NCBI GenBank assembly: GCA_037833965.1
Contig: AP031353.1
Span: 21,392,501 to 21,456,500, forward strand
Origin: Marchantia polymorpha subsp. ruderalis
Lineage: Eukaryota; Streptophyta; Marchantiopsida; Marchantiales; Marchantiaceae
Reading direction: 5' to 3'
Length of the DNA: 64,000 nt
Shown: positions 19,720-60,700 of the stretch, in pieces
Layout: each line of letters opens with the position of its first letter
Position numbering within the stretch: the stretch's first letter is position 1
Notes under the pieces: generated by a model
What the model saw: the letters and a program-made list of their open reading frames with translations, nothing else
Database searches by the model: none
What the model was told of the DNA's origin: nothing
Translations under genes and position numbers: made by a program

Positions 19720-19930
19720 CGTATGCTAACAGCTTTTATTGCTGTTGGTCGAGACCATTTGCATGAATGGCCGAAAAGTGGCACAGTTATTCCACTGAAT
19801 GTGGGGCTGCTTAACTTCTCAGCAGTACAAAGTTTGCATGTTCTTATACTTGGTCATTTATTGCCATTTTGCATGCAAGAGTCCAAAAGAATTCGAAAAC
19901 CGAGCTTGTCAAATACATTCCAAAAAACTA

Positions 19931-20435
19931 AGAGAAATTTGCTTATTGGACCCCATCAGAACCTGACTGTTTGATGGGACCCAATACCCAATACGTGTCA
20001 TTTTCTCATTTTCCCATATGGACCGCTCTGACCGGTTACCATCAGTTATGTTCTTGTAATTGATTTGTTTTCACTTCAATGATAAAAAATAATTTCTTTG
20101 ATTTTACATGGCTCTCAATCTTCATCATGGAAGAGTCTAATTTTTCATGTACCATAATGATTTTACAGTTATAATGTATGGGCATAATCTACACACTCAT
20201 TATTTTTTTTTCTAAATTTTTTGGTGGAAATCATGTCAGTGGCTTATTTTGGTCCGTGAAGTGAATTTCACTTTTCAACAAAGAGCCTCAGTGCTTTTCG
20301 TAACCCGGATTGAAAGGAATTACAAGAACTGGATGGACTGAATTGCCCGTCGGAAGGTTCCATAGGGTAAAATGGAACTTCAAGGGTCCCATCAAACATT
20401 CAACATTCTGATGGGTCCCTTCAAGCCAATTTCTC
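19931..20435. mobile_element. 505-bp MITE, Mutator-like
   Basis: Inverted repeats of about 51 bp (19932-19982 and 20384-20435, about 80% matching) end in GAGAAATT and share CCCATCAGAA and GTTTGATGGGACCC. The flanks are near-identical 9-mers, aaaaaacta (19922-19930) and agaaaacta (20436-20444). Copy B of the segmental duplication lacks the element at the matching point (near 56965), which supports a true insertion after duplication. A 9-bp target duplication with long inverted repeats is typical of Mutator-like elements. It has no coding capacity, so it would have been moved by a transposase from elsewhere. Confidence 0.8.
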
Positions 20436-22311
20436 AGAAAACTAGCATTGCATTCAAGAAAAGGATTAATTCCACATTGTGTCATCAACAATGCCTTCGT
20501 CCAGTCATGAAAGTTGTTGACTTGCGCAATGCGTAACTCCCTCTTTTGTTTGTGCGTGGGTGGTCGCATGTTTTGTATGTTGGATCTTCATCGTACATGC
20601 GGTATCCTTGATCCAGCGAAATGTTCAAGTTTCATGCAAGGCATGAATTTGAATACTAGAAATGTAGGGTATACGAATAAAGAAGGCGAGGCGTAGATTT
20701 TCCGGGTGAACATACAAGGAATAAAGTTCAGGTAAGACGCTTTTCGACTGAACATTCCACAACTTTGTGTTTTCTTCCGCGTTGAATTCCATGTGCTAAG
20801 AATCCACAATGAGCGACCGGAAACTTTTGAAAACCTGGACGAGTCCCTTTGCCCTACGCAAACATTTCAACAGCAAATCATCTAGGAGGTACATATTTTA
20901 ATAGGCAATTCTATACTGAAGACTGAATCCACAACATACACAATTTGTGATTGTATTGCCGTATGGTTTAGGAATCCGTTGAATGCTGTGCGGCTTTATG
21001 ACCATTTTCGTGTAGAAAAGGAAAGTGTGGTCAACAAAACTAACAGTCACTAGTAGCGGAACATTGTTACGCTTGTTATTGGTGCACACATTGATCCTCT
21101 ACAATGACTCATATTAATTACAAATGAAGGTATAATCAACAGCATAACTGCATCATAAAAACAGGAGTGACGAAGATAAATTCTCCATCTATTCTGCCCG
21201 GTTTATCGTTCCAATTCGTGAAAGCGTTGCTATCCGAAAATGTTGGAGAAATTGAGCAGAATGCACCCAAATTTTGAAGGACTGGTTACAACTGAGAGAA
21301 TTCTGATGCTGGATAGAACTGTCAGCTCCAATTCTGATTACAGGAATGCTCACTAATTGAAGAATGTCGATGACAAGATAGTCAAAGTCTATGCACAGTA
21401 CCTTTAGAATGGCGAAAACTGACAAATAATGCGTCTTATAGGTAGGTCTGATGGGTCTACATTCGACCATAGGAAGAAGTAAATAAATATGACGACCGCG
21501 TAGGACATAGTCAAGAAGCAAACTAGTCTGTAAACACAAGTCTGGATGCACAAAATAAAGATATAGAGGTAGACATATGGAAACATTAGCGGAAAGAGAA
21601 ACAGGAGCTGTTTTCTGCTGCGGTGTTGTACCCGGTAATTGATGCGGCTTCTAACTCTGCTCATAAACAAGAGGCGAAATGTCAGGATAGCTGCACCGAC
21701 TTTTCTCTGGCGAGCGAAGAAACTGCCTCAATTTTAGCAGACTCCGTGATTTTTCTCAGTCAGGGCAGTCCCTTGGGTCGAGCGCCTATTCATTTCGATC
21801 ACTGCTGGTTACAAATTGCCCGTTCCTCGAAGTTCGATTTCTATCCATACTCTGTATTCAAAATATGTCCGCAGATCTCGACCGTATCATGAGCAGAGGA
21901 TACTAATAAGTTTTAATTGATACCATCATCCGTATTCGCTGCAGATGTTATCCGATCGCTCTTGTGGTGGAGATTGTCTGCTCAAGGTGTCAAACGAAGA
22001 TGTATCAGACAATTAGTTCATCGACTAAGAAATTGACATAAATGAAACTAGTCGGGTACAGTGTGAGATATCAATCGTTGTGAGTATAGAATCTGTGATG
22101 CTTCTAAGAATGACGCGTGTACAATGCATCCAGCGAAACTAGCATTCGGAAGATTGGGGAAAAGAAAGACACTAGCGTGCTCGATGATACAAAGTTAACG
22201 AAGTTGCGAGGTAATTTCGCTTGATCCAAGAGTGAAGTGAATTTTTAGCTAAGAATTGTAAAGTCGCCTTGGAAATTCAGCAAACCTCTGATCGGCTTTG
22301 CAGAAGGAAGA

Positions 22312-43867: not shown

Positions 43868-45626
43868 TATATAGAAAGGCCTGGCAATTCAGCTGTCCTA
43901 TGTGGGGGAGTCTGACAGCTCTGCTGACCTTCTCCCCCATGTCTGGAGATTGTGAGATCCGCTCCGCTTTATTTTTGGTGTGGAACCCACACCACCCCTA
44001 GGAGAGCTCACAGACTCGTAGAAGCGCACGGCACGGATCCACACCACAAAGAGTGCTTTGACAATCGGCCGAATGGGTTCCGACATCGGCGGCAGAAGAG
44101 CTGAGAGAATGATTCAAGAGCTGACAAACTCGTTCAAGGCAGTCAAATCTGCTCGTTCTGTCCATGAAGCTGCGGCTCTAAAAGGTCCATGGACGACTTC
44201 GAGAGTTCAGAGATGAGAGGGTACGATCCAATTTATTTTCATCCACCACATCCAAGTAGAGACAAGGTATCCTAGTTTCAAGCTTGAGCTGCTTAGATGA
44301 TCAATATTCCACAACTGCAACATGTTTAGACGGTTTTGAAACTTGCAATTTGCTTGCTTCTATCTTACTGCACTTTTTGCTGATATTGGTTTTGATATCG
44401 CTTTAGGTTTGAGGGAGCCAACGAAGTATGCAAGTGTGGTGACAAATGCTCATGCAACTCTTGCACCTGCAAGTGAGAAAACCGCGTATCTACAGACTTC
44501 AGACCTCCACCTTGCGGACAATGGATAGAGATGCAACCTGATTGCTTAGTCAGCAATCAGCTCACGGTCTACAGCTATGCAGAGGACGCAAGGCGGGCCT
44601 GTTGTTTGTATGCACGCACTACGATTTTCAGAGAATGTAGGAAGTGTTGTCTTGTGCGTCGACGGCTGTAGGAAGAGCTCGACTTCAAGATGACAAGGGT
44701 TGGATTGTATATCCTGTCGACCAAAATAAAGACTTATTTTTCCAGCAAAATCACCTCCCACTGTCTTTTCGTCTTAGTGTAGAATAGGAATGACGAATTT
44801 GAATCTCGAGTGTGTAGGACAGAGGTGAACTTGCAAGCATAGAGGTCTAATCGACTCATAATGGCAAGGGATCATATTTTATGTCCTACACTTTTCCTTG
44901 AATCTAGAGGACATAGTACCAGGGTAGCAGAGATGACCAAAAAAGAGAAACATGGTGTACAATAATGGGATTTGAAGAACGGCATTTGCAGCGAGATAGA
45001 GTCAGTAGTCCAAGTTTAGTTAAAAAACCCTGAACCCTAGGATAGGGGGCACTTGAGCTCAATAGTTGGAACTGAGATGCATAAGCAGCGGGTCAGAGAA
45101 CATTGGTAGGATCTGTTGCGTTGAACCACTGCAAACACTCGTCATCTGAAGGTGTTGTGAAAGTCACATCAATTTAGAACTTTGTGAAAAATCTAGTATC
45201 ATCATCTTCTTAGCATATTGTCTTTGGTTTCTTTTTGTACCAATCATGTACTTTCTTCATAAGCAATTGATGCTTATGTAGAAACGTTAAATTAGAGAAC
45301 CAGACAAGTGTTATTGTGAACTTGAATCTGGCCAAGATGTATTGCTTTTAGAGAATCTAAAAGCAATTTTCTTTCGTGCAAATATGTATTGTCATACAAC
45401 TTACATCCGTAACATGTCATAATTACACACACATATAGAGAACAAGATCATACACACACAAATGCATCACAACTCGCCCCCCTAACTAGCGGTCAAGTTC
45501 CTCTTACTCCAAGTAATCCTATCTACAATCACATGCTATAGATATTCATGGTTGCGCAAATCAGTAGGTTGGGTGCTATGTTATTTCATCGTTAATCACA
45601 TATCAACAATTCGTAACATATGAAGA
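43868..45626. other. Intergenic, no gene recognised
   Basis: No recognisable coding domain was seen on either strand. The left continuation of the methyltransferase retroelement should lie here in minus orientation, but I found no polymerase motif or second LTR. A perfect 12-bp hairpin with a GAA loop lies at 45341-45367. Confidence 0.45.
45341..45367. repeat. Perfect 12-bp hairpin
   Basis: ATTGCTTTTAGA (45341-45352) and TCTAAAAGCAAT (45356-45367) pair exactly around a 3-base loop. A short T run follows, but the context is non-coding and its role is unknown. Confidence 0.8.
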
Positions 45627-45841
45627 TCAAGTCATCTCCCCCTCTGAAGTACATCGTCTAGCCGGAACAAAAGAAATAAGTGGAGTCAAACACGACATGT
45701 TGTGGTAACCCACTTTTTGTTTTTGGTCGGAATTAAAATATTTTTGGAAAATAAGTACCGCGGCAGCAACTGTAAATAGTAATCGGGACGAAAAATAGAG
45801 TACAAAAGGGAGAATCACGGGTCACGGAGAATCTAGGAGTT

Positions 45842-45866
45842 GGGGGGGGGGGGGGGGGGGGGGGGG
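45842..45866. repeat. Poly-G tract, 25 bases
   Basis: A run of 25 G follows CTAGGAGTT. Copy 2 has only GGG at the same place (about 52859-52861), so the tract grew inside copy 1 or is an assembly artefact. Confidence 0.9.
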
Positions 45867-46290
45867 CTTAGGCCGAGGTCGAGCGCCTTGGACGGAGCGG
45901 ACGGTCCCTGCTGAAGACAGAAGAAACCGCCTTCGGCGCAGACGCCTCGAGAGTATCTTTTGCTGAAGACGTACAAAGCACGCGACACATGCGTCTTCGT
46001 CATAAGGAAAACGACCCCGTTACTTCGTAGGCCTTCGGCCGTACGCCTCCGGCGGTAGGTTCCTTCGCCCCAACACCTTCGGCACTAGCGCCTTTGTCGC
46101 TAGCGCCGCCCTTGTCGTTAGGTTTCGCCTTCGGCGGAAGGAATGCCTTCGCATCTAGGATGCTCCTTCGGTGGAAGGATGCGCCTTCGGCGGAGCGCCT
46201 TCAGCGGAAGAAGAAAGAACAACGGAGTCGGCGGAACTCCGGACCTTCGCCGCGAGCGCCTTCGGCGGTACACAAACGGAGAACGGCGTT
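45867..46290. repeat. Hairpin repeat cluster, CCTTCGG type, copy 1
   Basis: Many short palindromes with the core CCTTCGG recur, for example CGCCTTCGGCG (about 45930, 46127, 46190) and GGCCTTCGGCC (about 46030). Each can fold into a short GC stem with a TTC loop. The flanking bases differ between sites but still pair. More lie at 47920-48095, inside the ORF region, and a few in the tail (about 49340, 49540). Confidence 0.85.
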
Positions 46291-46791
46291 GGCAGAAATC
46301 GGCGTAATCAAGATTGAATGTACAAGTGTGGGAGTCCGCGCAACGGCGGAGCGTGAATTCACACGTGCAAATTGGGCCGTTACGCCTCCGCGCCGGCATC
46401 GCATTAAAGCGGGCCGCGGCCAGCCCAAGTGTCGAACGTTGAGCAATCGAGAAGGAAGGGACTCACTCTCACATTTTCAATTTTGCATTCGCTAGAGCTC
46501 GCGACGCGCAGCAAAGTAATTCGCGTTGAACTTGCGGAGAGATTTTCGAGAGTGTAGGAGAGTGTGCGGGAAATTTGCCCAGGGTGCGCAACAGGAGAAT
46601 CTTGCAGGAGTCTTGTGGAGAATTCGCTGAGTGCTCGCGGAAAGGTTGAGAGAGAGTGGGAGGAGAATTGTAGCGAGAAATTGCAGCGAGTTCGCCCGAG
46701 CCTCCGACGCGCAGTAACCGAGTTTGCGGAAAGTTTGCAAGAAGTTCGCGTCAGCAAAGAGCAAGAGTGCGCATGAACTTGCAAGAACTCG

Positions 46792-49094
46792 ATGGCCTGG
46801 TCAACTCAGTTGCGAATGGTCCTGCTGAAAGTGCCGCAGATCGGACTGCGCGCATTTCGGAACGAGCTGTCGGCAGTGAAGCTCGATTTCCTTCTATGGG
46901 GATGGAATTGGATGTGCCCGGATATGGTCCAAGAGTGGCTGCGGGAGAGGAACCAACCTCTGCGCGGTTTTTGACCACATCCGGAGAGGTGGCAGGTCAG
47001 TGATTGGGAGCAGGTCTTGGCAAGGTGCGCGGGAGAGGAAGGCGACCTCCTCTTTGAGTGCGAGAGTGTGCAGGTCACGAAGGGAGAAGAAATTTCCTTC
47101 GGTGCACTTTTCAAGAACAGCAAGTCGAGCAAGAACGGGTACAAGATCCGTGACTACAAGGATCGCATGCGGAGTAATGTCGCGGTAGCACTCCTCCAGA
47201 TTTTACAGCCGCACCGGACCACCTACATGACTTCTTGGCAGGTGGGGTTTGTGGAGCTGGCGTTGACGGGAACTCCGATCCATTGGGCTCGGATTTTGTG
47301 GAAGGCAACGCGACAGCACGCGCAGAGGAGAAGGGAGGATCGATCGATCACCTCTCTCCCTACTTAATTAATTTCTATCGATCGATGGGGTGTTTGACAG
47401 CGTCGGAGTGTATGCAATTTCCCTTGCTGTCACGAAGCAATCCGGGCAGATACGTGAAGGATGTCGAGGTTGACACCGACACCGACGAAACGCCCGCTTG
47501 CACACCACCAGCTCGACCACGAGCAAAGGACAAACCGCGGGCAGTACGAGTACCGTGGAAGTGTAAATGGGATGGAGAAGCGGACCAGAGCTAGCGGGAA
47601 GTGCCTGCTACTCCCGCCCGAAGTCGGACGACCCACGAGCCCTCAAGTCGGCCGAAGCAGAAAGCACGCAAGCTTGTTCTGCCGGCGAGTAGCGCGGACA
47701 CAAGACAAGCCGCGGAGAGAAGAAACTCGCCATCCTCGGAGGAGGATGCGAGTGCAGGAGTTCTTGGGAGGACAGCTGACCTCCCTACACCGAAGGCACA
47801 AATGACTTCGGAGGAAGCACGTAAGCCTTCAGGCCAAGGAAGACGGCATGCGGCACCGGCCAGCGACGGAGAGGTGCTTGGCCTCCGAGCAAGTACCCTT
47901 CGATGACTCGACTTCGGGTCAAGAGCCTTCGGCTCAAGCGCCTTCGGCGTAGGAGCAAAGTAGAAAGGAGCCGTCGGCTCAAAGGACTTCGGCGGAAGCG
48001 TCTTCGACACAGACACAACTCGAGCAGCCTGCGGAGGACGAGGGCAGGAAGGAGGAGACACGTGGCCTTCGGCACAGATGCCTTCGGCGGTAGCAGTTCG
48101 GGTAGGTGAAGCAGGCCCACTGGGAGCAAGATCTCCCACCCCGTTGGAGATGTTGGCAGGAAGTGAAGCGGCGGTCGCGGAAGAAGAGGCTGCGCAACCC
48201 AGCTCCAGAGAATCGAAGAGGATTTCTGCCGTGACAAAGATCCTCGACACAGAGGACGACACGGGGTCAGAGGATGAGGAAGTGGAGTCGGTGCAAGGTA
48301 CACCGACGGGAGTGCTTTGCGAGCAGGTGGTACCGCTATTGCGGTACCTAGATCGCAAGGCAACGAGCTATACGGATCCCTGCCATCGAGGATCCTACGT
48401 TGAATTGGTCAGGAATCGAACTTGGATTAAGGTAGCAACAAATCCCGAGCTGATAGCCCTGGACCAGAAGTACCGGCAGCTAGAGGAGAAGTACAATTTC
48501 CTGCTGGGACATTGTGCCCTCTCGCGGAAGCTGCATAAGACAGCACTTCAGCTGCGAGATGACACAGCGGCCGATGCCTAGCGCGAATTTGGGGAGCTGC
48601 GCGCGAAGATCGAGGCGGAGCTTCCTTCTGAACGAGCTCAAAATTGCATCTTGGCAGAGGAGCTCGTGCAGCAGACACGGTTGCTGGAGCAGAGTGAACT
48701 CGCACGGAGGGCGGACGAGGAGTTTCTGCGTTGACTGCAATCGCAGTGCGACGAATTGAGAGCGCAGCGTGCGGAGGCGGAGCTGAAGTTAGTGGAGTTT
48801 GAAGGCCACAACCGGCGCGCGACAGATCGCATGCAGGAGGAGTTAGTAGCGCGAGTTGACCGGTGTCTTAGAGGTTATACTCGTTGGAAGATTGTAACGC
48901 GGGAGAGAGTGACCTTGCACGAGTTGGAGATTCGTGCGGCGGCCTTGATGTCGGATGACAGTCGGAGTCGGTTGTGCGTAGCGAAGCGGTTGTATTCTTT
49001 TCTGTCGAGGTCGCGGGACGCCATTGCGAACCTCAAATCAGATGTGATCGCGGTGTTGCTGCGGCTGGGACTGCGCAGTAGGGCAGACGATTGA
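46792..49094 (+). pseudogene. Element coiled-coil ORF, broken copy
   Basis: Homologous to the intact ORF of copy 2. The conserved start ATG (46792) is followed by QLRMVLLKVPQIGLRAF and WGWNWMCPDMVQEWL. An in-frame TGA at 46972 interrupts it. Then come DWEQVLARCAGEEGDLLFE, LLQILQPHRTTYMTSWQVGF and TPIHWARILW. From about 47345 to 48130 an expansion rich in CCTTCGG hairpins, absent from copy 2, shifts the frame. Homology resumes at about 48130 with an acidic linker, EQVVPLLRYLDRK, and a long coiled coil holding two more stops (TAG 48579, TGA 48732). The C-terminus ends SDVIAVLLRLGLRSRADD. The function is unknown. The TGA stops are one C-to-T step from CGA. Confidence 0.85.
47345..48130. repeat. 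Copy 1-specific expansion with hairpin units
   Basis: About 790 bases lie between the conserved globular domain and acidic linker of the ORF. They have no counterpart in copy 2, which has a short linker there (about 54765-54960). Toward its right side the segment contains GAGCCTTCGGCTC, GCGCCTTCGGCG and GGCCTTCGGC palindromes. Open frames on both strands here look like products of the GC-rich repeat. Confidence 0.7.
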
Positions 49095-49429
49095 TCGGGT
49101 AGGGAGTTAGTGCGCAGTCGGCCTTCGCACAGGAGGCATAGCAGATGAGGCGTAGAGTAGAGTGTTAGGTAGTTAGGATTTTAGAGTGTAGAAAGTAGTT
49201 CAAGGCGTTGGCCTTGGGGGATTTTCCAATTTCGGAAGTTCAGTTCAAGAACTCGTTTTCTCTACGCGTTTGTGTCTTTCGTTTTGTCACCGCGCAAGAG
49301 GAGTTGTTGAATTGTCGAAGTTACCGCAGCCTACAGCCGAAGGCCTTTGTCTGAGTGTTCTGAGCTAGCAGATAGGCTAGTCAAATCTGAAATTCAAACT
49401 TACACCTTCGGACGATTTTCCCTGTTTGT

Positions 49430-50065
49430 ATTCTTTTGGGATTTTTCCCCTTGAATGCAAAAGTGAAGTTTTGTTACTTCGGAGTAAGCCTTGGTTGTAA
49501 ATTCAGGTTGTGTGTGTTACGCTGCTTGAGGCGCCTTCGGGGGTAGCCTCCGCAGTATTTCTGGGAATGACTAGTGACTGAGAATTCAAACTCGTCAATA
49601 GACTGTTAAGTTGTGACATTGGATCTTTTTTCCATTGAGTTTCTCAGTTTGGATTCTTGTAGTCTCTGCGTGTTTTGTGAGTTGAGTGTGTTGTTCACCG
49701 CGTGAAAGTGACTTCGGTTTGATGAAGGTACAACATCCGAAGTAGAAAGTCCAACCCGGATGCCCTGCACTAGCAGTAACTAGTGGAAGGGTTGTAAATT
49801 CGGAGTTGGGGTTACTACCTACAGATCATCTAAGTGTACTCTTGGGAAACTTTCCCCCTGAAGCTTAAGTAGAGGCCCTAACCGACCTTTGAATTGTGCT
49901 TTTCAAGTTTCAGGTGTGTGTTGGGGTGAACTACGCTGCACTGTGCGAACTCCGAGTGACCTTTGAGTTGAGCACTTGCAGTATTTCTTGGAGTGACAGT
50001 AGCCTGAGAATTCAAACTCTTCAATAGTCTGATAAAACGTGACATTTAGTACTTTGTGTGTTGCC
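49430..50065 (+). repeat. Internal tandem duplication in tail, copy 1
   Basis: Two units about 420 bp apart share GCAGTATTTCT.GGA.TGAC, GAGAATTCAAACTC.TCAATAG and GTGTGT..ACGCTGC (for example 49551 with 49979). Copy 2 shows the same two-unit structure (56210-56785), so the duplication predates the spread of the copies. Confidence 0.8.
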
Positions 50066-50435
50066 TCTGGCCCTGTGGGTTCGACCTTTTGCTGCTATAC
50101 TGCAGTTTTAACCTTTGGTGGGTTATTACACATGTGTCATCACTTAGAACATCTATCACACATTAACATACATGCCGTTTGACCAAATGACCCACACAAC
50201 AAGCACCTCAAGCCAACACGTACTATTGCCAAGCTTGGATCCATAGTACCATCCACGTTTGGAAAATGACATGACACATAGTTGCGCGCATGATCCTTCC
50301 AAACAACACCGTCATGATCTTCCAACATGAGATTTCCAGAATATAACACTTCTTGCACTTGCAAGATAGTGCGTCGCGCCGTCTCATCCAATGTTTTTGA
50401 TGCAGTCTGCTTTATAATAGACTTAGATCTCCACA

Positions 50436-52407
50436 TTAACCCTACGAATCAATAGTCCATAATTTCCTCTCCGTATGGTTGCATATCGCAACGTATCTTT
50501 ATGCTAAGCAATTGCAAGGTTCTCAAATGATATAGCCATGACTCTCCAAATGAGCTCTGCTCGTTGAGATTACACTCTCATCCACATGTCTAGATCACCA
50601 ACATTCACTGTCTCACTAGACTCACGACGAATCGATATTGACAAGTTTGAATCTTGGCCGTACAACTGGAAAATATGATGAGAAGTAAACCAAGAATGCT
50701 ACTTACAGCTATATCAATAGGAACAATGAAAGATTGGCATATCACAAGCCAACTCTATTTGTATGTTTGATCCAATACAAGCAATCAACTCCTTCATGTT
50801 AAAGGCAAAACAATTCTTATATGCACGTAACAATTGTGTCAACCGTCGTCTTACTCCTCTTGTGATTTTGAGACCAATCAATGGCTCTCAATACTTCTCT
50901 ATAGGCACGCTAGAGCGAGATTACACTCTCACCGGTTGCTATGCCATATCCTCAAGAGAATCGGTATGGCTCTCTGTACCTTCCTTTGAACCAACTCCCA
51001 CGTGAGACACTCCTCCAACTATATGCGCTACAACTCTAGTCGGTCCTCTCGTCACGTCCCAAAAACTCCAAGGATAACGAATATCTTGCTTGTTGGCCCC
51101 AGCCATTGTCTCTACCGTCCCGGTAGGCAATGAGCTAACTAGTGGTGTAGAAACCACCAAATCAGTGCAAATACGTCATTGTTCAGCCAAACTCAGGCTC
51201 ACAATCCAAATCAAAAAATTTAGATTCAAAGCTTAATCCAAAACCTGACAACGTGACATCTCTAAAACTGAAGAAATCATCGTTGTATCGGTAAAAAACT
51301 CCATGGTGCGTTTGCGCTCATTTGCTTTGAGTTCTACTTATAGCTACACATGGGTATAGCTTACAAGCCCGGGACCACTATCACGATATGCATGTGATGA
51401 AGGAAAACTAACCAACATGGATAAAGTCATCCGAGGCTAATCCACGGGTTTCATCAATGTTGTAGGTGACGTGTCAGGGTCTCTCACCGCCTAAGAACGT
51501 CACAAAAAATCCAAGATACTATCAACGATGAGTGTAAGATTACGCTACAAGAAATCAAAAGCACAACGTATTATCTCCCGTGATAGAAGATTTGTCTATC
51601 ATAATCATAAACAATGAGCAAGTGATTCAATACTTGTAGCATCCAACAATACAGTTGCTTCAATCCATGATCTGACCTCATGAATATTTGCCATCAACTG
51701 GGTCCGAATGTCACCAAACAATGGCAAGTTCTCTAGAATATATGTTGACCGATGTATCTAATGCACTTCAAGATGACGTAACACACGTAACATCTCTCAA
51801 AACATACAACATCTAGGGTCCTGCAACCCTACTCCATAACCAGCGCGTGTGTGATCCTGGCATGGCAATCTTGCAATCACCAAGTCAATAAACTCAACCC
51901 GATCGAGATCCGACGTCCCCTACAATGTAATATTTGAAGTCAACGTCTACTAGTTTCCTCAAATAACTGAATGTGACAACAATGAAGGATAATGTTGTAT
52001 CAATTGACTCAACGTGCAGTCTCATCTTTCTCCACATACAAGTATCTGTGTACGAAAATACTTGACTGCAACATTGTAGCCAAACCTATGCTGATTCCAC
52101 AAAAAAAAATCCTATAAACAAACAACTTCCAAATAACATGCTATTGGTGTAGTAACTAATGGAGATAGTGCACTAGGATCACAAAGAGGTTGATCATCCT
52201 GAGATTTCTCTATCTACTGAGTTAAAGAGTCCTCATACCAAACCTTCTTCATCAACCTATGAGCCTTCAACTATACCTCATGGCAAGAACGCCAAAGTGA
52301 AACGTCCAAAGAAGAGTACATTGCTGCTGCAAAGGTCACAACCTCCTCCACATCCTCATAGACTATAGTGTTGTCGGCCGACATGTTGCACATCAACAAG
52401 TCATTGG
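50436..52407. other. No plus-strand gene opposite the methyltransferase frame
   Basis: Short plus-strand frames here (for example 50763-51005) are shadows of the decayed minus-strand methyltransferase frame and show no domain. Confidence 0.6.
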
Positions 52408-52421
52408 ATCATGTAACCACT
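52408..52421 (-). other. Degenerate primer-binding site
   Basis: Next to the LTR end, minus-strand TGGTTACATGATCC aligns with the plant initiator tRNA-Met primer site TGGTATCAGAGCC with a few changes. Position and flanking AATGAC fit the usual context, but the match is imperfect. Confidence 0.5.
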
Positions 52422-52592
52422 TGTAACACTAGGGTTTAAAGAGAATCTTATTTGAAGATGAAAACACAAACTCTGAAAATGAGATATAACAACAATGGTT
52501 CTCTCTCCCTTATATAACTCTTTCCAACAAGTACAAAAAAATAATATTTTATTCTCACTATCTATTCTATTACTTGTGGATTGATGCTAACA
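52422..52592 (-). repeat. LTR of the methyltransferase retroelement
   Basis: Read on minus, the 171 bases start TGTTAGCATC, contain TATATAAG (about 52518-52510) followed by GGGAGAGAGAACC, and end CCCTAGTGTTACA. This is the form of a plant LTR with promoter TATA box. Just downstream, AGTGGTTACATGATCC resembles a degenerate tRNA-Met primer-binding site (normally TGGTATCAGAGC) and is followed by the ORF start. No partner LTR was found to the left, so the element is probably truncated. Confidence 0.7.
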
Positions 52593-52909
52593 ATTATTTT
52601 TGCTGTTGATCAAGACTATTTGCGTGAATAGTTGAAAAGTGGCACACTTATTTCACTGAATGTGCCACTGTTTAACTATTCAACATTACAAGAGATTGCA
52701 TGTTCTTGTGGTACCCCACTTTTGGTGTTTTTACGGAATTTAAAACATTTTCGGAAAACTGTACCGCGGCAGCAGTGTAAATAGCCATCGGTGCATCAAA
52801 ATAAAGTGAAACTGGATGATCTCGGAGAATCTCAAAGAATCTTGTAGAATCTAGGAGTTGGGCGCAACGTCTGGGACAAACGCCGCCCTAAACGACAGGC
52901 TCTGAAGGA

Positions 52910-53810
52910 GTACCCCTTCGGCGCAAGGCGCCTAAGCCGCCTTCGGCGCTAGAGAAATCCCTCAGAATCTGATCAATTTCCAAACGCCTTGACTTGGTTA
53001 GGATTTCGTTGGAAAGAGCTTGACATGCTGATTCTAACGAGCCCAAGAACGCCTGGAACGGATGAGGACTCAGGGAATTATGACGGTCGAAAGATACAAA
53101 GATCTTCGCCTACGCATATGCGAAGGAAGTTCGCCTACGCATAGGCGAAATAGGGCTTGACGTCGGCGGGGTGTCCGCCGAGAATGCCGCCTACGCATAG
53201 GCGGGGAGGATTTGCACCTACGCATAGGCGAACGAGAATCGCCTACGCATAGGCGCTTCGGCGTCGGCAGGAAGTCCGCCTTCGGCCCTAGAAATCCGCC
53301 TTCGGGGTTGGAACTTGTATGGCGCCTTCGGCGCCAGCGCATCACGGATGGGCGAGGACCCAACGGAGTAGTAAAATCCGTACGAACCGTATGGACTGTA
53401 CGGACGGAACGGACGAGTGCGCCTTCGGCCGGCCGGGATTACGGAGACAAGAGCGCCAACGGAGAGGCGAGAGAAATGGACAGACTGGACGGAGTCCGTT
53501 GACCGCAGTCAACGCCTTCGGCACAGCCGCCTTCGGCGCTGCGGCTGCGGCGAGGGACCTGCGCGGACGATCGTCTTGTGTGCGGACGGAATTCGCCTAC
53601 GCGTAGGCGAGCGCCTACGCACAGGCAGATGAAGTTCTGCGCCGGCGGAAACTCCGCCAGGGATTCCGCCTACGCAGAAGGGAGTTCGACTTTTGTCATA
53701 TGCGCGGACGAACGCCTTTGGCGGAGCGGCACTAGCCAAATTGAAGTATGAAGGAGTGTAGCGCGCCGGCGAGAAATTCGCCTTCGGCGCTGCGCGCCTA
53801 TGGCCGCGGC
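52910..53810. repeat. Hairpin repeat cluster, two families, copy 2
   Basis: The leader holds CCTTCGG-core palindromes (about 52914, 52945, 53321, 53420, 53514, 53776). A second family with core CGCCTACGCATAGGCG folds as a 6-bp stem with a CGCA loop (about 53110, 53130, 53189, 53216, 53239, 53593). Outer bases pair at several sites: TTCGCC with GGCGAA at 53128, CCGCC with GGCGG at 53188. The second family was not seen in copy 1. Confidence 0.87.
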
Positions 53811-53963
53811 GTGATACGCTGGCGGAGTTCAAATTACCAATTCGAGCGTGCGAGTGAAGTTGGCGTTGGCGGAGCGTGAAGCCGCGCGTGAGAGAGAAGG
53901 CCATTATACCGCGGAGCCGGCGCGGCCATCAAGTGATTCGACCTTCACGACCGAGAGCCGACC

Positions 53964-55859
53964 ATGACCTCCTACGAGGAGACAGAGGACGTCTTATTCT
54001 TGAATTTGCGATTTCAATTTCTGGTGCGAGCTGCGCGCGTCCACTTGCTAGCTGAGAGACGTTCTAGACATCACCGCGCGGAGAGTTACTCGGTGGCTGA
54101 AAGAGAATTGAGTGCGCGACAGTTGGAATTGAGAGAAATTAGAGTTTGCAGAGGAGGCAGAAGCGCAAGCAAGAGGCTCGGGCAGAGCAGAGAGAGAGTT
54201 GCGCGAACCAATTTCAAGAACGCAATGTCGAAATCGATGAGGCTGCGGATGGTGCCACTCAAGCTCCCGCAGAATGGGTTGCGTGCCTTTGAGGAACGGC
54301 TGATTGCAAGGAAACTCGAGTTCTTGCCGTGGGAATGGAATTACGTGTGCGTATACATGGTGCGCGAATGGTTGGACGAGGAGCGACCACCTACGCGTGG
54401 ATTGCGTTCGCACGTAGATAGATGGACTGTCCGCGATTGGGGACAGGCATTGGGGAGGTGCGCAGGTGACGACGGGTACCTCCTATTCGAGAGTGAGAGC
54501 GTCAAGGTAACGAAGCAAGACGAAGCCTCCTTCGTGGAATTATTCAAGCGGGAGAGGTCTTCCAAGAACGGGTACAGGACCCGCGACTACAAAGATCGTT
54601 TCCGCAGGACCCTAGCGATGGCGTTGTTGCAATTGTTGCAGCCGCACCGCACTACGTACATCACGTTGTGGCAAGTGTACTTCGTGGAGCTCATCTTGGC
54701 CGGAGCTCCAGTTCACTGGTCGCGTATCTTGCATAGGGTGATGCGACAGCATGCGTTTGAGGAGCGGGGAGGAACTCTCAATCACCGAGGGAGCAGCGAG
54801 GCTGCAGGAGCGCCTGCAGCGGCAGAACACGCAGCCATCTCGCAGCCCCACTCAGGCCAGTCGCCGACGCAATCAATGGCGACCGAAATCCTCAATTCGG
54901 AGGATGATGAAGAAGGAGGATCCACGGAATCAGTGTCGGGATCGGGATCCACCGAGGAAGAGGAGGAGAAATTAGTTGATGCGCCGGCGGCGGCGCTCTG
55001 TGAGCAGGTAGTACCTCTGCTGAGGTACTTGGATCGCAAGATGGAGAAATACGCGGATCCTCGCCAGCCTGGGTCCTACGTCGAGTTAGTGCGCAGGCGA
55101 ACTCGCACTAAAGTCCACACTAGCAAGTTGCTAGCTTGGGTGGACCGGGAACTTAAGGATCTGCGAGAGAAGCATGAATGCTTGTGGGGTCAGTACAACC
55201 TCAATCAAAAATTTTACAAGTACTCCGACAAGGTGAGGGATGGTAGACTGAAAGAGCTCGCCAAGGAGCAGGTGAAGCTCACGGAAGCGCTGGATTCTGA
55301 GCAGGCTCAGAATCAAATTTTGTCAGAGGAGCTCGTGCAACAGACGCGGTTGTTAGAGCAGTGTCAGCTCGCACGACAGGCGGATGAGGAATTAATCCGC
55401 AGGCTGCTATCCGAATGCGGAGAATTGAGAGCACAGCGTGCGGAGGCCGAATTGCAGTTGGTAGTAATTGAAGACGATCGCCGGCGAGAGGCAGATCGCA
55501 CGAAGGAAGAGATGGCGAGGCGAGTCACCCACTGCCTCAGGGGCTACGCCCACTGGGAAGTGGTGACGCAGGAGAAACTCACACTTCGTGAGTTAGAGCT
55601 TCGTGCAGCCGGGTTGTTGACAGGTGACAGTCGGAGTCGGCGGCGAGTAGCGAAGAAGCTCGATTCTTTTCTGTCGAAGGCGCGAGACACCATGGCCACC
55701 CTTGAGACGGAGGTTTCCGCGGTGTTGCGGCGATTGGGACTGCGCAGTCGAGCTAAAGACTGGCAGGGTAGAGAGTTAGTGCGCGGCAGTCCGTCGCGCA
55801 GGAGGCGAAGCACAGGTTCTGCGGAGTGTAGTGTAGCGTGGTTCCGTGCAGGCGCATAG
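53964..55859 (+). CDS. Element protein, coiled-coil, unknown function
   Basis: This is the only open copy of the element ORF, with 631 codons from ATG 53964. The homologous frame in copy 1 starts at an ATG matching codon 88 here (54225), so translation may begin there and give 544 residues. Domains: a conserved globular part at about residues 93-270 (RMVPLKLPQNGLRAF, WEWNYVCVYMVREWL, DWGQALGRCAGDDGYLLFE, LLQLLQPHRTTYITLWQVYF, APVHWSRILH), an acidic low-complexity linker (about 300-335), EQVVPLLRYLDRK, then a charged coiled coil to about residue 560 and a basic tail. The globular part recalls domains of plant transposon-associated proteins of unknown function, but I cannot assign a family. No zinc knuckle, protease, polymerase or DDE motif was seen. 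It could be Gag-like or an accessory protein. Confidence 0.75.
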   Translation: MTSYEETEDVLFLNLRFQFLVRAARVHLLAERRSRHHRAESYSVAERELSARQLELREIRVCRGGRSASKRLGQSRERVARTNFKNAMSKSMRLRMVPLKLPQNGLRAFEERLIARKLEFLPWEWNYVCVYMVREWLDEERPPTRGLRSHVDRWTVRDWGQALGRCAGDDGYLLFESESVKVTKQDEASFVELFKRERSSKNGYRTRDYKDRFRRTLAMALLQLLQPHRTTYITLWQVYFVELILAGAPVHWSRILHRVMRQHAFEERGGTLNHRGSSEAAGAPAAAEHAAISQPHSGQSPTQSMATEILNSEDDEEGGSTESVSGSGSTEEEEEKLVDAPAAALCEQVVPLLRYLDRKMEKYADPRQPGSYVELVRRRTRTKVHTSKLLAWVDRELKDLREKHECLWGQYNLNQKFYKYSDKVRDGRLKELAKEQVKLTEALDSEQAQNQILSEELVQQTRLLEQCQLARQADEELIRRLLSECGELRAQRAEAELQLVVIEDDRRREADRTKEEMARRVTHCLRGYAHWEVVTQEKLTLRELELRAAGLLTGDSRSRRRVAKKLDSFLSKARDTMATLETEVSAVLRRLGLRSRAKDWQGRELVRGSPSRRRRSTGSAECSVAWFRAGA

Positions 55860-56209
55860 ATAGTGCAGTGTAGTGCTAGTTAGTACTTAGAAGGTATAAA
55901 GTAGTTCAAGGCGTCTTGCCTTGGGATTTTTCCAGTTTCGGAAGTGCAGATCAGGAACTCATTTTCTCTGCGTGTTTGTGTTCTTAGTTTTGTCACCACG
56001 CGAGAGGAGCTACACCTTAGCGATCCGCATTGTGTAGTTGAAGGCCTTCGGCCGAATGTTCAGAGCTAGTACATTGGTTAGAGACTTGAGTAGTTCGGAT
56101 CTACACCTGCGGATGATTGCCGATGCTAAGAGCCAGTGACGAGTTAGATACTTGAACAGTTTTCCCCTTACACCTTCGAGTGATTGTTTCTTATTGTACT
56201 CATTCAGGA

Positions 56210-56652
56210 TTTTTCTCCTGAATGCCAAAGTGAAGTTTTGCTACTTCGTGTAAGCCTTGGTTGTAAATTCAGGTTACGATGCAGCAGGTGCCTTCAGGGT
56301 AACCCCTGTAGTATTTCTAGGAATGACAAGTGCCTAAGTATTCAAACTCTTCAATAGACTGTTATGATGTGTTACTGGAATGTTTCTCAGTGAGTCCTTC
56401 CGTGCGGACCTGTGTTCTCTGCGTGTTTTGTGAGTTGAGAGTGTTGTTCACCGCGTGTGAGTGACTTCGATCCGAAGTAGGAAGTCCAAACCGGGTTCCC
56501 TACGCTAGCAGGAAACTAGTGGAAGGGTTGTAAAAGCCAGAGTTGGGAGTCACTACCCGCAGCTTCGCTGAGTGTACTCGTGAGAGACTTTCCCCCTGAA
56601 ATCTTGAGTAGAGGTCCTAACCGATCTCTGGGTTGTGTTTCTGTAGTTTCAG

Positions 56653-56683
<31 letters not shown>

Positions 56684-56785
56684 GCTGCACTGTGCGACCT
56701 CCGAGTGAACACTTGCAGTATTTCTGGGAGTGACAGTCGCCTGAGAATTCAAACTCCTCAATAGTCTGTTAAATGTGACACTTTG
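56210..56785 (+). repeat. Internal tandem duplication in tail, copy 2
   Basis: Units about 400 bp apart share GTATTTCT.GGA.TGAC and ATTCAAACTC.TCAATAG (56310 with 56714), matching the duplication in copy 1. Confidence 0.8.
56653..56680. repeat. GT microsatellite, 14 units
   Basis: A perfect GT run in the tail of copy 2. Copy 1 has only a few GT units at the same place (about 49914). Confidence 0.95.
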
Positions 56786-57412
56786 TACCCTGTGTGTTCC
56801 TCTGTCCCTGTGGGTTTGACCTTTCTACCACTATATTGCAGTTTTAGCCTTTAGTGGGTTATTACAGTTCTTATACTTGGTCATTTATTCTCTGCCATTT
56901 TGCATGCAAAAGCCCAAAAGTATGTGAAAACCAAGTTTGTCAAGTCACATACCATAAACCTAGTCTTGCATTCAAGAAGAGGATTATTTTTACCGTGTTT
57001 CATTAGCAATAACTTTGTCCAATCATGAAAGTTGTTGGCATGCGCAATGCATGATTCCCTCTTTTGTTTGTGAGTGGATGATCACATGTTTTGTATGTTG
57101 AATCGTCATCGTAGAGATGATGTATACTTGATCTAAGAAAATGTTCAAGTTTCATGCAAGGCATGTGAATTTGATTTCGTTTATTACAAATGCAGGCTAT
57201 ACTAATAGAGAAGGTGATACGCAGATTTTTCTGGGTGAACATACAAGGAATAAAGTTGAAGTAGTACACTTTTGGACTGAACATTTCACAACTTTGTGTT
57301 TTCTTCCGCATGGAATTCCATGTGCTATGAACCATTATTCCATGAATCCAGAATGAGATACTAGAAACTTTTCCAAACCTGGATGATTACCTTTGCACAC
57401 TTGAATAATCTA

Positions 57413-57735
57413 GGAAGTAGCGGTTAGTTATACTTCAATTTAGGTTAATTATCACTCATCCTACCCTATTTAAAGTGAACAAAAATGTTTTCGATATCAT
57501 GTAAGGAAAAAGCCACGACTTATATTGAATGGGTGAAATGGAAAAAATTGTCCGCATTGCATTCGCAAGGAAATATAGACTTTCTCATTGACTCAATTAA
57601 TGCTTTCAAGAATTCACAAGGTGAGAGCGTGATTTCATGGGTGGTATTCCACACATCCAAATTTTTTTAGATTACCCATCACATACTTCTCTACGGGAGA
57701 GTATAGTAAAGTAAGGGATAATTAGCCTCTCCCAT
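57413..57735. mobile_element. Block B-specific insertion, possible MITE
   Basis: Between sequences shared with block A (CTAGGAAGTA on the left, CATATTTTAAT on the right) copy B holds about 320 extra bases. TAATTATC near the left and GATAATTA near the right are inverted, suggesting terminal inverted repeats, but the exact ends and target duplication are unclear. Confidence 0.45.
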
Positions 57736-60700
57736 ATTTTAATGCATAAATCTCACCGGAAAACTTAATCCACCATATACACAATTTGTGATTGTATTGA
57801 GGCATGATTTAAGAATCCCTTAATGCTGTGCGTTATTATGACCATCCACGTGTAGAAAAGGAAAGTGTGGACAACAGAACTAACAATCACTAATAGAGAA
57901 ACATTGTTAGGCTTGTTATTGGTGCATACATTGATCCTCTACAATGATTCATAGTAACTACAAACGAAGGTATAATCAACAGGATAACTTCATCATAAGA
58001 ACATGAGTGACGACTATACATTCTACATCTATTATCCACGGTTAATCGTTCCAATTGCCGAAAGCGTCGCTATCCAGAAATGTTGGAGAAGTTGCGCAGA
58101 ATGCAACCAAATTTTGAAGGACTGGTTACAACTGTCAGCTCCAAGACTGTTTAACAGAAATGCTCACCATAATGAAGAATGTAGATGACAAGATAGGCAA
58201 AGTCTATGCACAGTACTTATAGAATGGCGAGAACTGACAAATAATGCGTCTTATAGGTAGATCTGATGGATCTACATTCGACCATAGGAAGAAGTAAGGA
58301 AATATGACGACCCCGTAGGTCATAGTCAAGAAGCAAACTAGTCTGTAAACACAACTCTGGATGTACAAAATAAAGATATAGAGGTAGACATATGGAAACA
58401 TAAGCGGAAAGAGCAACAGGAGCTGTTTTCTACTGCGGTGTTGTACCCGGCAATTGATGCGGCTTCTAACTCTGCTCATAAACAAGAGGCGAAATGTCAG
58501 GATAGCTGCACCGACGTATGTCTGGCGAGCGAAGAAGCTGCCTCAATTTTAGCAGACTCCGTGATTTTTCTCAGTCAGGGCAGTCCTTTGGGTCGAGCGT
58601 CTATCCATTTCGATCACTGCTGGTTACAAATTGCCCGTTTCTCGAAGTTCGATTTCCATCCATACTCTGCATTCAAAATATGTCCGCAGATCTCGACCGT
58701 ATCATGAGCAGAGGATACTCATAAGTTTTAATTGATATCATCATCTGTTATCCGATCGCTCTTGTGGTGGAGATTGTCTGCTCAAGGTGTCAAACAAAGA
58801 TACATCAGACAATTGGTTCATCGAAAACTAAGAAATTGACATAAATGAAACTAATCGGGTACAGTGTGAGATATCAATCGTTGTGAGTGTAGAATCTGTG
58901 ATGCATCTAAGAATGACGCGTGTACAATGCATCCAGCGAAACTAGCATTCGGAAGACTGAAGTAAAGAAAGACACCAGCGTGCTCGATAATACAAAGTTA
59001 GCGAAGTAGCGAGGTAATTTCGCTTGATCCAAGAGTGAAGTGAATTGTTAGTTAAGAATTGTAATGTCACCTTTGAAAATCAGCAAACCTCTGATCCGCT
59101 TCGTCTCTTTGCAGAAGGAAGATCGTTTGGAGTGGATCTCAACAGCAAGCCATTCAGTAGCTGAAGAACTAGTATCAGGCGAACAGTCACAAGGTGCTGC
59201 AAGCACTTATACTCCTTTGCACACTCAGAATCATCTCTGCATGAGAATAGGCCTGGTAGTACTGATTGCAGCCTCTGTGGTGGTTCTGTGGCATGAGGAA
59301 TCGTAATATTCTACTTTCGATTCAAAGAAAAGCATTAAAAATTTTCCCAGCAGTAGAAATCCACCCTTGTTCGAACCGTCCAATGATCGCATAGAGGCTC
59401 AATTCCGTGAGTCCTGTTACTGTCAAAAGACTTCTCGCATCTCAAAGTTTCTATATTCAGGTGTCTTGTACAGTGCTGTGGCAACCAAAGCTTGCATGAG
59501 TCTAGCAACATCTTATCGATCCCTTTCGAATCTTCGATTCCGGAGAGACATGAAGGGTAGCTGGGGATCGAAAATGACCACCATGAAAAAAGCGGAAGGT
59601 AGCTGGTGCAAAGAACTTAGGTGGGCTCAATTTCATTCTGTTACAAGTGACGTCTGCTCATTCCATGAGACGACGATAGCTGACGCTGTGCTTTCATTCG
59701 CGCCGAAAGGTTTGCTGAAGAAATTGAGCTTCTGGACAGTTTGTTTGTTGGATTGCCTTTCGTAATCTGAAGCAATCGTTGCTTTGAATTCAAAGCTGTT
59801 CGAGGCGAAATAGAGATATTTTTCAAGGGTCCTTCGAGGGTTATTTTCACACTGGTGTGAAAAAGCCTGAAGGTCACGGTTTCATTCTGTTTGACATAAC
59901 TGTACAGCTATATCACTGCATGCATGCGTTGTCCTTAATTGTGATGGAAATTTTGCAAATATGCTCGAATCGCGAGATTTCAATTCAAGTCTGGAAGCAT
60001 ATTTCTTTAACACCATACTTCTTATTTCTTCACCAGTAACGTCAAAGTTCAAAGAAATACATAATGCGTCTCGAAATGAAGGTTCTAGCAGCCAAGCGAA
60101 TCGCCGCTTTCGCCACTATATTTGAAGAAAAGTGTGGCACTGCCTTTAGTGCGAACGTAATGACATATAGGCAACAACTGTAGGAACGCATCGCTAAAAA
60201 GTTGTTAATTAGTTGGAGGCTTTGAGACTCCCAAAAAGAATGAAATTCATTTCGAATGAGGGCACTCACGCGCTGAGTGGGCGTAACCGGTGCAACCTTA
60301 AAGCGTTCGACTCTGATGGATTCAAGAGGATGTTGGTTCAGCAACATTTCACTTCTTCCGCAGCAGGCCACAGCTTAGCTGGTCCCTAACATCAGAATAT
60401 CTGCTACTCCAAACTAAGAACACTGCGCATGCAGAATTCTAGCCAAGTGAGATGACAATTTACACTAAGCTTTGGCTATGGAAAGGTCATACTGCATCTG
60501 CCTGGTTCATGGGCGCGTCCGAGGAGAAGAGCGTTCAGAGCTACCATCAGCTTTTGAGATAGCTATCCATGAGCAACTAAATATCCAAGCTTTATAAACA
60601 AGTTCTGATTCTGAACTGAAGTGGAACAGTGCAGTGTGCTTTGTAGCCCAGTAGTGATGATGTTGGAAGAACTTGGTTACTAAATACCGAAACGAAGAAG

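What the first reader, a model, noticed from the sequence alone, without database searches (positions are those of the whole stretch)
50131..52393. A retroelement that carried its own C5 DNA methyltransferase and PHD finger
On the minus strand one frame shows C5-methyltransferase motifs in canonical order: motif I remnant, LPCQ with AGYGVGLQDPR, ENL, a motif VIII segment, and motifs IX-X. A PHD finger follows, and the whole starts just inside an LTR. Methyltransferases captured by retrotransposons are, to my knowledge, reported only from a few lineages such as dinoflagellates and charophyte algae. A land-plant copy joined to a PHD finger would be a notable chromatin-writing transposon. Motif order and PCQ are seen; the retroelement link is inference from the LTR and primer site.
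Basis: partly seen in the sequence, partly recalled or inferred. Interest (0 to 1): 0.92.

Follow-up and report, generated by a model that had tools for sequence, protein, structure and literature searches.

The report
Liverwort retrotransposons carrying a DNA methyltransferase
The window holds a dead fragment of a large family of mobile elements in a Marchantia-type liverwort, whose intact copies carry a DNA-methylating enzyme and a histone-reading PHD finger together with the copying machinery; related elements occur in mosses and green algae, and the way they appear to insert is unusual.

Summary
Window 52421-50130 (-), continued at 45700-45427 beyond a nested insertion, is a decayed piece of a Ty3/gypsy retroelement: 5'-truncated, reverse transcriptase to integrase core deleted, full of stops. 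The same 241-Mb genome (nine contigs; a Marchantia by its protein matches) holds a large family with young copies. Six were read: ORF1 (gag, protease, DNMT3-like C5-methyltransferase), one in-frame TAG in a readthrough-like context, and ORF2 (RT, RNase H, integrase, PHD finger; unbroken in four). The methyltransferase is under purifying selection (median dN/dS 0.14). The methyltransferase recurs in other liverworts and Sphagnum; with the PHD, and moved between RNase H and integrase, it recurs in chlorophytes. The ends are not ordinary LTRs but A-coding-B-A-B split repeats with 4-bp target duplications. An 11-nt self-priming site and the polypurine tract fit a B-A LTR, so inserted copies look like a two-LTR circle opened at GACAGCTGTC. 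Closest known: KnitGypsy-Dnmt3 of the alga Klebsormidium. New variant of a known kind: I found no report of the land-plant members, the PHD, the relocation or the permuted insertion.

The parts
50709..52421 (-). remnant of ORF1 from about codon 860 to its end (methyltransferase domain about 52174-51170), the normal ORF1/ORF2 stop, and ORF2 codons 1-77; 26 in-frame stops in the aligned frame, one of them the normal one
51800..51919 (-). stop-free piece with motif IV (LPCQ) and the residues that follow it
   Evidence: E 2e-11
50130..50699 (-). remnant of the integrase C-terminal part and first half of the PHD finger; RT, RNase H and integrase core missing just upstream (junction about 50708/50699)
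45427..45700 (-). continuation: end of the PHD region and 3' non-coding part, up to about the start of repeat B1
   Evidence: match to L004; relatives L025 and L043 run from 50130 straight into 45700
45701..50130 (.). nested insertion of another repeat (TGTGG...TTACA, 4430 bp), 5-bp duplication CATGT on both sides; interrupts the PHD region
52416..52586 (-). LTR end of another multi-copy LTR family fused upstream of the remnant (in L041 and L042 followed by TGGTATCAGAGC)
52707..56866 (.). second insertion of the same other repeat (4160 bp), 5-bp duplication GTTCT, in the DNA upstream of the remnant

Best explanation
The feature is a dead, deletion-bearing copy of a high-copy Ty3/gypsy retroelement family that carries a DNMT3-like C5-methyltransferase and a PHD finger. 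Shown by sequence: four complete copies are 10.5-12.0 kb; ORF1 = gag, CCHC knuckles and DSGA protease (read by eye), methyltransferase; one in-frame TAG followed by CAACCA or CAACTA; ORF2 = RT, RNase H, integrase, PHD; repeats A-coding-B-A-B, ends TGTC...GACA, 4-bp target duplication. Inferred working: transcription starts in A at AGTTCTTCGAG, and these first 11 nt fold back onto the complementary CTCGAAGAACT directly after A1 and prime reverse transcription (self-priming, about 0.8 likely). Ribosomes reading through the TAG make the Pol-PHD extension, so methyltransferase is made at Gag level (about 0.75). The polypurine tract and primer site define an LTR B-A, whereas inserted copies end at the B|A border; this fits a two-LTR circle (or equivalent) cut at the palindrome GACAGCTGTC after each CA by the integrase (about 0.6). 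The methyltransferase then most likely methylates the new DNA before or at insertion (about 0.5), and the PHD finger tethers the integrase to a histone H3 tail state (about 0.5). The window copy lost its 5' part and its polymerase, was duplicated with its surroundings as dead DNA, and took up further insertions.
For: PF00145 search of the own genome: 123 scored matches (a few are host genes), 25 of them in open frames of 1324-1365 codons (hand count). Six copies read with flanks. Pfam on ORF2 of one copy: RVT_1 4e-34, RT_RNaseH 3e-36, H2C2 9e-16, rve 2e-13, PHD 9e-11. Methyltransferase closest to DNMT3A/B/C in PDB by sequence and by profile (best E 1e-22), then DRM, HaeIII/HhaI, DNMT2. Catalytic Cys in 98 of 101 and the motif VI Glu in 100 of 101 domains of over 270 aa. 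dN/dS medians: methyltransferase 0.136 (33 of 36 pairs had dS over 0.03), RT 0.063, INT 0.069, PHD tail 0.16, gag-protease 0.18. 4-bp duplications in 4 of 4 copies with both ends. Primer complementarity in 6 of 6 copies, and the predicted RNA folds pair nt 1-11 with the primer site in full in two copies and nt 1-8 in a third (three folded). On contigs C1-C3, 2 of 96 primer-site hits have a B|A border just upstream, and 0 of 21 full-span elements. Window decay: 174 C>T or G>A against 38 reverse and 104 transversions.
Against: No activity was tested: methylation, readthrough, self-priming, circle cutting and PHD binding are inferred from sequence. The A2|B2 border is alike in all 4 copies read, which end-joining of a circle would not obviously give, so it may be copied from RNA as in DIRS models. 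The methyltransferase is not found in every relative: P0169, P0198 and P0210 have RT, integrase and PHD and a long N-terminal part but no match, and of 117 proteins with an integrase found by the PHD search 42 have it (many are separate ORF2 proteins or fragments). C>T and G>A changes in the window are hardly commoner at CG (37 of 143 sites) than elsewhere (137 of 613), so methylation-driven decay is only one reading. The species is inferred from protein matches.
Confidence: 0.85

Rival explanations
1. The window locus is a domesticated methyltransferase-PHD gene, expressed from the LTR promoter upstream and duplicated as a gene family.
For: LTR end upstream in the same orientation; the deletion joins ORF2 codons 77 and 841 in one frame; three relatives (L022, L023, L040) share the LTR fusion and two (L025, L043) the deletion.
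Against: 26 in-frame stops in the window. Leaving out the normal ORF1/ORF2 stop, it shares 10 of the 16 stops of L022, 10 of 13 of L023 and 10 of 17 of L040 (but 0 of 1 in the short stretch of L043), so the sequence was most likely dead before it was duplicated; some sharing could be parallel decay. Flanks are duplicated too.
Confidence: 0.03
2. The methyltransferase is a chance passenger: a cellular DNMT3 copied into one element and spread by hitch-hiking, without a role in the element.
For: Capture by retroelements is known to recur (PMC5890265); some relatives lack it.
Against: dN/dS about 0.14 in the domain; catalytic Cys in 98 of 101 and Glu in 100 of 101 domains, PCQ invariant among 16 relatives at 37-76% identity; kept in bryophyte and chlorophyte relatives.
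Confidence: 0.07
3. The split repeats are an ordinary LTR element misread because of nested or rearranged copies.
For: Two places with a B|A border upstream of the primer site exist on C1-C3, and L015/16 has a further piece of the same family next to its 3' end.
Against: 4 of 4 complete copies from two subfamilies have A...B-A-B bounded by 4-bp duplications; 0 of 21 full-span elements on C1-C3 have an exact 5' B|A border; the legend of Fig. 4 of PMC5890265 gives the Klebsormidium element the repeat structure of a DIRS.
Confidence: 0.05
4. Bryophyte and chlorophyte elements captured a DNMT3 and a PHD independently, and their likeness is convergence.
For: The methyltransferase sits at two different places in the polyprotein; de Mendoza et al. 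argued for independent captures in dinoflagellates and charophytes.
Against: A single type I methyltransferase (P0031) finds the Haematococcus one at 39% identity, E 7e-51; the integrase C-terminus plus PHD is 43-49% identical between Marchantia and named chlorophytes; RT and methyltransferase trees split the two types in the same way.
Confidence: 0.15

Closest known systems
KnitGypsy-Dnmt3 of the charophyte Klebsormidium nitens (de Mendoza et al. 2018, PMC5890265; abstract, sections 9 and 11 and search passages read; figures and supplements not seen)
   Same: Gypsy domains, DNMT3-class methyltransferase, repeats arranged as in DIRS, purifying selection on the methyltransferase (their Ka/Ks under 0.2; here median 0.14).
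   Different: Described with the DNMT in the Pol ORF; here it is in the Gag-protease ORF before a leaky-looking stop. PHD does not occur in that paper's main text. Host is a land plant with at least 171 exact B|A borders in its genome. No record named Klebsormidium surfaced here, so direct kinship is untested.
SymbioDIRS-Dnmt3 and SymbioLINE-Dnmt of dinoflagellates (same paper, passages read)
   Same: Retroelements with C5-methyltransferases; A-coding region-B-A-B repeats in SymbioDIRS, and there too two domain orders.
   Different: SymbioDIRS has a tyrosine recombinase; here a DDE integrase with 4-bp target duplications.
Chromoviruses (Ty3/gypsy with an integrase chromodomain; recalled)
   Same: A chromatin-reader domain at the C-terminus of the integrase.
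Tf1-type self-primed elements (recalled) and spumavirus integrase cutting 2-LTR circles (PMC1180852, abstract read)
   Same: 11-nt self-complementary primer site; integrase cleavage of a palindromic junction of circles.
   Different: Here both are predictions from sequence; the palindrome is at the B|A border inside the LTR defined by primer site and polypurine tract.

Membership tests
KnitGypsy-Dnmt3-like elements | Gypsy-type RT, RNase H and DDE integrase | tested here: met
KnitGypsy-Dnmt3-like elements | DNMT3-class C5-methyltransferase in the element's coding region | tested here: met
KnitGypsy-Dnmt3-like elements | A-coding-B-A-B repeats | tested here: met
   (4 of 4 copies with both ends)
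KnitGypsy-Dnmt3-like elements | DNMT in the Pol ORF | tested here: not met
   DNMT is in ORF1 upstream of an in-frame TAG; the unnamed relative P0072 has all domains in one long frame
KnitGypsy-Dnmt3-like elements | sequence kinship with the K. nitens element itself | not testable with these tools
Ty3/gypsy LTR retrotransposons | RT, RNase H, integrase order; polypurine tract; primer site | tested here: met
   (primer site is self-complementary, not tRNA-like)
Ty3/gypsy LTR retrotransposons | same LTR at both ends | tested here: not met
   5' end has A only, 3' end B-A-B
DIRS/PAT elements | split direct repeats | tested here: met
DIRS/PAT elements | tyrosine recombinase and no target duplication (recalled) | tested here: not met
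   DDE integrase and no recombinase among the Pfam hits of ORF2, 4-bp duplications
Chromoviruses | chromodomain at integrase C-terminus | tested here: not met
   PHD PF00628 instead, no chromodomain listed
Domesticated host gene | conserved open frame at the locus | tested here: not met
   26 in-frame stops, many shared by relatives

The most novel reading that the evidence does not exclude
A clade of writer-plus-reader gypsy retroelements spans the green lineage (at least Marchantia and chlorophytes), derived from one old capture of a DNMT3-like methyltransferase and a PHD finger. The elements self-prime, make a circular intermediate, methylate it, and let the integrase cut a palindrome inside the LTR to insert in a permuted form, guided by the PHD finger: an integrase-based insertion route distinct from that of retroviruses and of DIRS elements.
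Probability: 0.4. Interest if true: 0.85.

Novelty: new variant of a known kind. Interest (0 to 1): 0.72.

Why it matters
Transposons are normally the targets of DNA methylation. Here a large and, by its repeat identities, recently active family in a Marchantia-type liverwort encodes its own DNMT3-like methyltransferase and a histone-reader domain under purifying selection. That makes a standing question, why a transposon would write the mark that silences transposons, testable in a plant. The permuted ends with an integrase and target duplications also question the tidy split between LTR elements (integrase, linear DNA) and DIRS elements (recombinase, circular DNA).

Tried and rejected
Rejected: a tRNA-primed LTR element starting at 52393 (the LTR belongs to another family); a DIRS element (the polymerase is gypsy with a DDE integrase); a domesticated gene (shared stops); a near phage source for the methyltransferase (17 IMG/VR hits, of 79 stretches with a matching pattern, are at 26-43% identity over short stretches).

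Literature: ten searches. Those aimed at a PHD in gypsy or green-lineage elements and at a Marchantia element listed no paper whose title or abstract start reports either; four of the listed papers were opened in passages only. Preprints and most subscription papers are not in that library. The type labels that a script gave to P0012 and P0026 as type II are artefacts of deletions in Marchantia copies; both were too short to enter the methyltransferase tree. The 133 of 133 PHD count is biased because most of those proteins were found with the PHD part; the count from proteins found by the methyltransferase alone is in the report.

Full report
WHAT IS IN THE WINDOW. The window is G000:C4:21392501-21456500 of a 241-Mb genome in nine contigs. 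The best named protein matches are Marchantia polymorpha, up to 94-95% identity, so a Marchantia is inferred; the exact species was not tested. The minus strand between 52421 and 50130 encodes, with many stops, the second part of ORF1 and both ends of ORF2 of a retroelement. Stop-free pieces searched apart match the methyltransferase profile in canonical order, best piece E 2e-11. At sites invariant in eight intact sequences the window shows 174 C>T or G>A changes against 38 reverse and 104 transversions. That is what decayed methylated DNA would show (inference), but the changes are hardly commoner at CG (37 of 143) than at other C or G sites (137 of 613).

The remnant is 5'-truncated at 52421, lacks the RT to integrase core (junction about 50708/50699), and is cut in the PHD region by a 4430-bp insertion (45701-50130, duplication CATGT). 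A second member of the same insert family sits at 52707-56866 (duplication GTTCT). Relatives L025 and L043 lack the first insertion and carry the same deletion; L022, L023 and L040 carry the LTR fusion. They lie at C4:21.47, 21.57 and 22.66 Mb and C6:20.27-20.28 Mb and share flanks as well. Shared stops (10 of 16 in L022, 10 of 13 in L023, 10 of 17 in L040, 0 of 1 in the short L043 stretch, leaving out the normal one) suggest that the unit was dead when it was duplicated.

The stretch 52586-52416 is the end of a multi-copy LTR of another family; in L041 and L042 it is followed by TGGTATCAGAGC. The type of that family was not tested.

THE FAMILY. Of 123 scored PF00145 matches in the genome, which include a few host genes, 25 lie in open frames of 1324-1365 codons (hand count of the table). 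Six copies were read with flanks. All six have ORF1 of 1358-1365 codons and an in-frame TAG after it. Four have ORF2 of 1042-1045 codons in one piece; in L011/12 and L019/20 it is broken. ORF1 shows a gag region, two CCHC-like knuckles and a DSGA protease motif, all read by eye (the Pfam protease hit is below cut-off, E 0.12), and PF00145 at E 3e-10. ORF2 of one copy shows RT, RNase H, integrase zinc finger, integrase core and, at residues 996-1040, PHD (E 9e-11). The stop context is TAG CAA CCA in five copies and TAG CAA CTA in one; both fit the TMV-type readthrough motif CARYYA (recalled).

THE METHYLTRANSFERASE. Sequence and profile comparison with PDB chains put DNMT3A/B/C first (profile E 1e-22 to 9e-19), then DRM, HaeIII and HhaI, and DNMT2. 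The host's own DNMT3-like and DRM-like genes are separate loci (L001, L002; class judged by motif order). In an alignment of 16 relatives (37-76% identity to the first) PCQ and the Glu of motif VI are invariant. Across 101 domains of over 270 aa the Cys is kept in 98 and the Glu in 100; in the second type the Pro of PCQ is often Glu (24 of 41 read GWECQD). Pairwise dN/dS medians (pairs with dS over 0.03): methyltransferase 0.136 (33 of 36 pairs, nine copies), RT 0.063 (17 of 21), integrase 0.069 (8 of 15), PHD tail 0.16 (18 of 21), gag-protease 0.18 (15 of 15). Of 16 loci given to that script, those without an unbroken frame over the segment dropped out.

ENDS AND REPLICATION SIGNALS. Four copies with both ends read have A1 (291-293 bp) at the left, B1-A2-B2 at the right, termini TGTC and GACA, and 4-bp duplications AGGC, AAAG, AGTG and TACT; lengths are 11978, 11565, 11729 and 10547 bp. 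In the other two (L011/12, L019/20) the 3' repeats are incomplete. Within the four copies A1 and A2 are 99.3-100% identical and B1 and B2 100%, so these insertions are young. A polypurine stretch (AGCTAGGGGGGCG) lies directly before B1, and the 44 bp printed before B1 are identical in all four, across two subfamilies whose B is only 74% alike. At the end of A1 stands CTCGAAGAACT, and inside A its exact reverse complement, in 6 of 6 copies; a TATA-like box lies 29-30 bp upstream of that complement in five (L013/14 reads TACAGA). Three RNAs were folded from there: nt 1-11 pair with the primer site in full in L009/10 and L013/14, and nt 1-8 in L017/18. By position, primer site and polypurine tract define an LTR B-A, but insertion happened at the B|A border, where the intact border reads GACAGCTGTC and the inserted ends lack the central GC.

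Genome counts of exact strings: B|A border 171, A1-primer border 278, polypurine-B1 border 187, against 0 to 2 for reversed controls. The printed lists are complete for C1-C3. There, 2 of 96 primer-site hits have a B|A border 200-500 bp upstream, both also with the polypurine tract before it, and of the 21 primer sites that have a B|A border 8-14 kb downstream none does. Mutated borders would be missed by exact strings.

MECHANISM. The layout A-coding-B-A-B equals a two-LTR circle (LTR = B-A) opened at B|A. Cuts after each CA of the palindrome would leave 2-nt overhangs as in 3'-processing. A retroviral precedent for integrase cutting a palindromic circle junction is PMC1180852 (abstract read). 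Against a freshly end-joined circle: the A2|B2 border is alike in all four copies, so it may be copied from RNA. The role of the methyltransferase (marking new DNA) follows the proposal of de Mendoza et al. (discussion read). The PHD at the integrase end stands where chromoviruses have a chromodomain (recalled).

RELATIVES. The methyltransferase search gave 66 proteins, a second with P0031 gave 53, and the integrase-PHD search 176, of which 120 were listed. In some searches only the roughly 8000 candidates sharing most words were scored. Named hosts of the methyltransferase: Marchantia, Calypogeia fissa, Sphagnum troendelagicum, S. fallax and Haematococcus lacustris; Volvox reticuliferus and Tetrabaena socialis records found by the PHD search also matched the profile, and a 'Chrzof' record matched by integrase-PHD. 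The Calypogeia and Sphagnum records do not reach the place of the PHD, so a PHD in other bryophytes is not shown. Most other hits are unnamed metagenome proteins, and one 96%-named bacterial bin record (P0039) is probably misbinned (inference). 34 of 210 proteins held methyltransferase, RT, integrase and PHD together.

Two domain orders exist: methyltransferase before RT (type I, Marchantia) and between RNase H and integrase (type II, Haematococcus). Labelled rows of the two types lie on opposite sides of one branch in the methyltransferase tree (15 and 41 labelled of 102 rows, support 100) and the RT tree (12 and 24 labelled of 59, support 99). On the host-rooted methyltransferase tree only type II is a clade. 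These are quick trees with long branches, and the root is unsure. Of proteins found by the methyltransferase, 23 had an integrase match; 17 of these had at least 200 aa after it, and all 17 have a PHD; P0073 and P0074, with 174 and 195 aa, have none but may be too short, since the PHD usually starts 160-200 aa after the integrase match (counted from its rows). The C4HC3 pattern is kept in 128 of 134 PHD regions. Among 27 proteins with at least 350 aa before RT, 24 have the methyltransferase. Of 117 PHD-found proteins with an integrase, 42 have it, and of 48 that also have RT, 20; many of the rest are ORF2-type proteins or fragments in which it would not be expected.

KNOWN OR NEW. de Mendoza et al. 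2018 describe KnitGypsy-Dnmt3 with gypsy domains and DIRS-like repeats (section 9 read); the words PHD and Marchantia do not occur in its main text, and its figures and supplements were not seen. A 2025 survey mentions DNMT3s in streptophyte and dinoflagellate retroelements, and the Marchantia passage shown concerns 4mC (12 of 22 places shown). Six searches aimed at the PHD or at a Marchantia element listed no report of either. I file this as a new variant of a known kind.

Noticed in passing
window 45701-50130 and 52707-56866: Two members of another repeat (TGTGG...TTACA, 5-bp duplications, one with a 631-codon open frame at 53964-55859) without long terminal repeats found at the ends; a piece of one end is abundant in the genome (4042 first-look candidates for the query 52380-52860, 40 scored).
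   Followed up: partly
type II proteins such as P0084 and P0085 (Haematococcus lacustris): In type II methyltransferases the Pro of the catalytic PCQ is mostly Glu (24 of 41 read GWECQD) while the Cys is kept in 39 of 41; whether this changes activity is unknown.
   Followed up: partly
G000 contig C1 (5.6 Mb): C1 holds 17 of the 96 primer-site hits on C1-C3 (18%) with about 8% of their length; it may be a sex chromosome where the family piles up (inference).
   Followed up: no
G000:C2:20746595 and C3:16783422: Two places where polypurine tract, B, A and primer site follow each other, as in tandem elements sharing one LTR.
   Followed up: no
proteins P0060-P0063: A small group of unnamed methyltransferase proteins with EHV in place of ENV in motif VI.
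   Followed up: no
window 19697-21922: Further diverged relatives of the DNA found at 52584-58739: local duplication inside the window.
   Followed up: no
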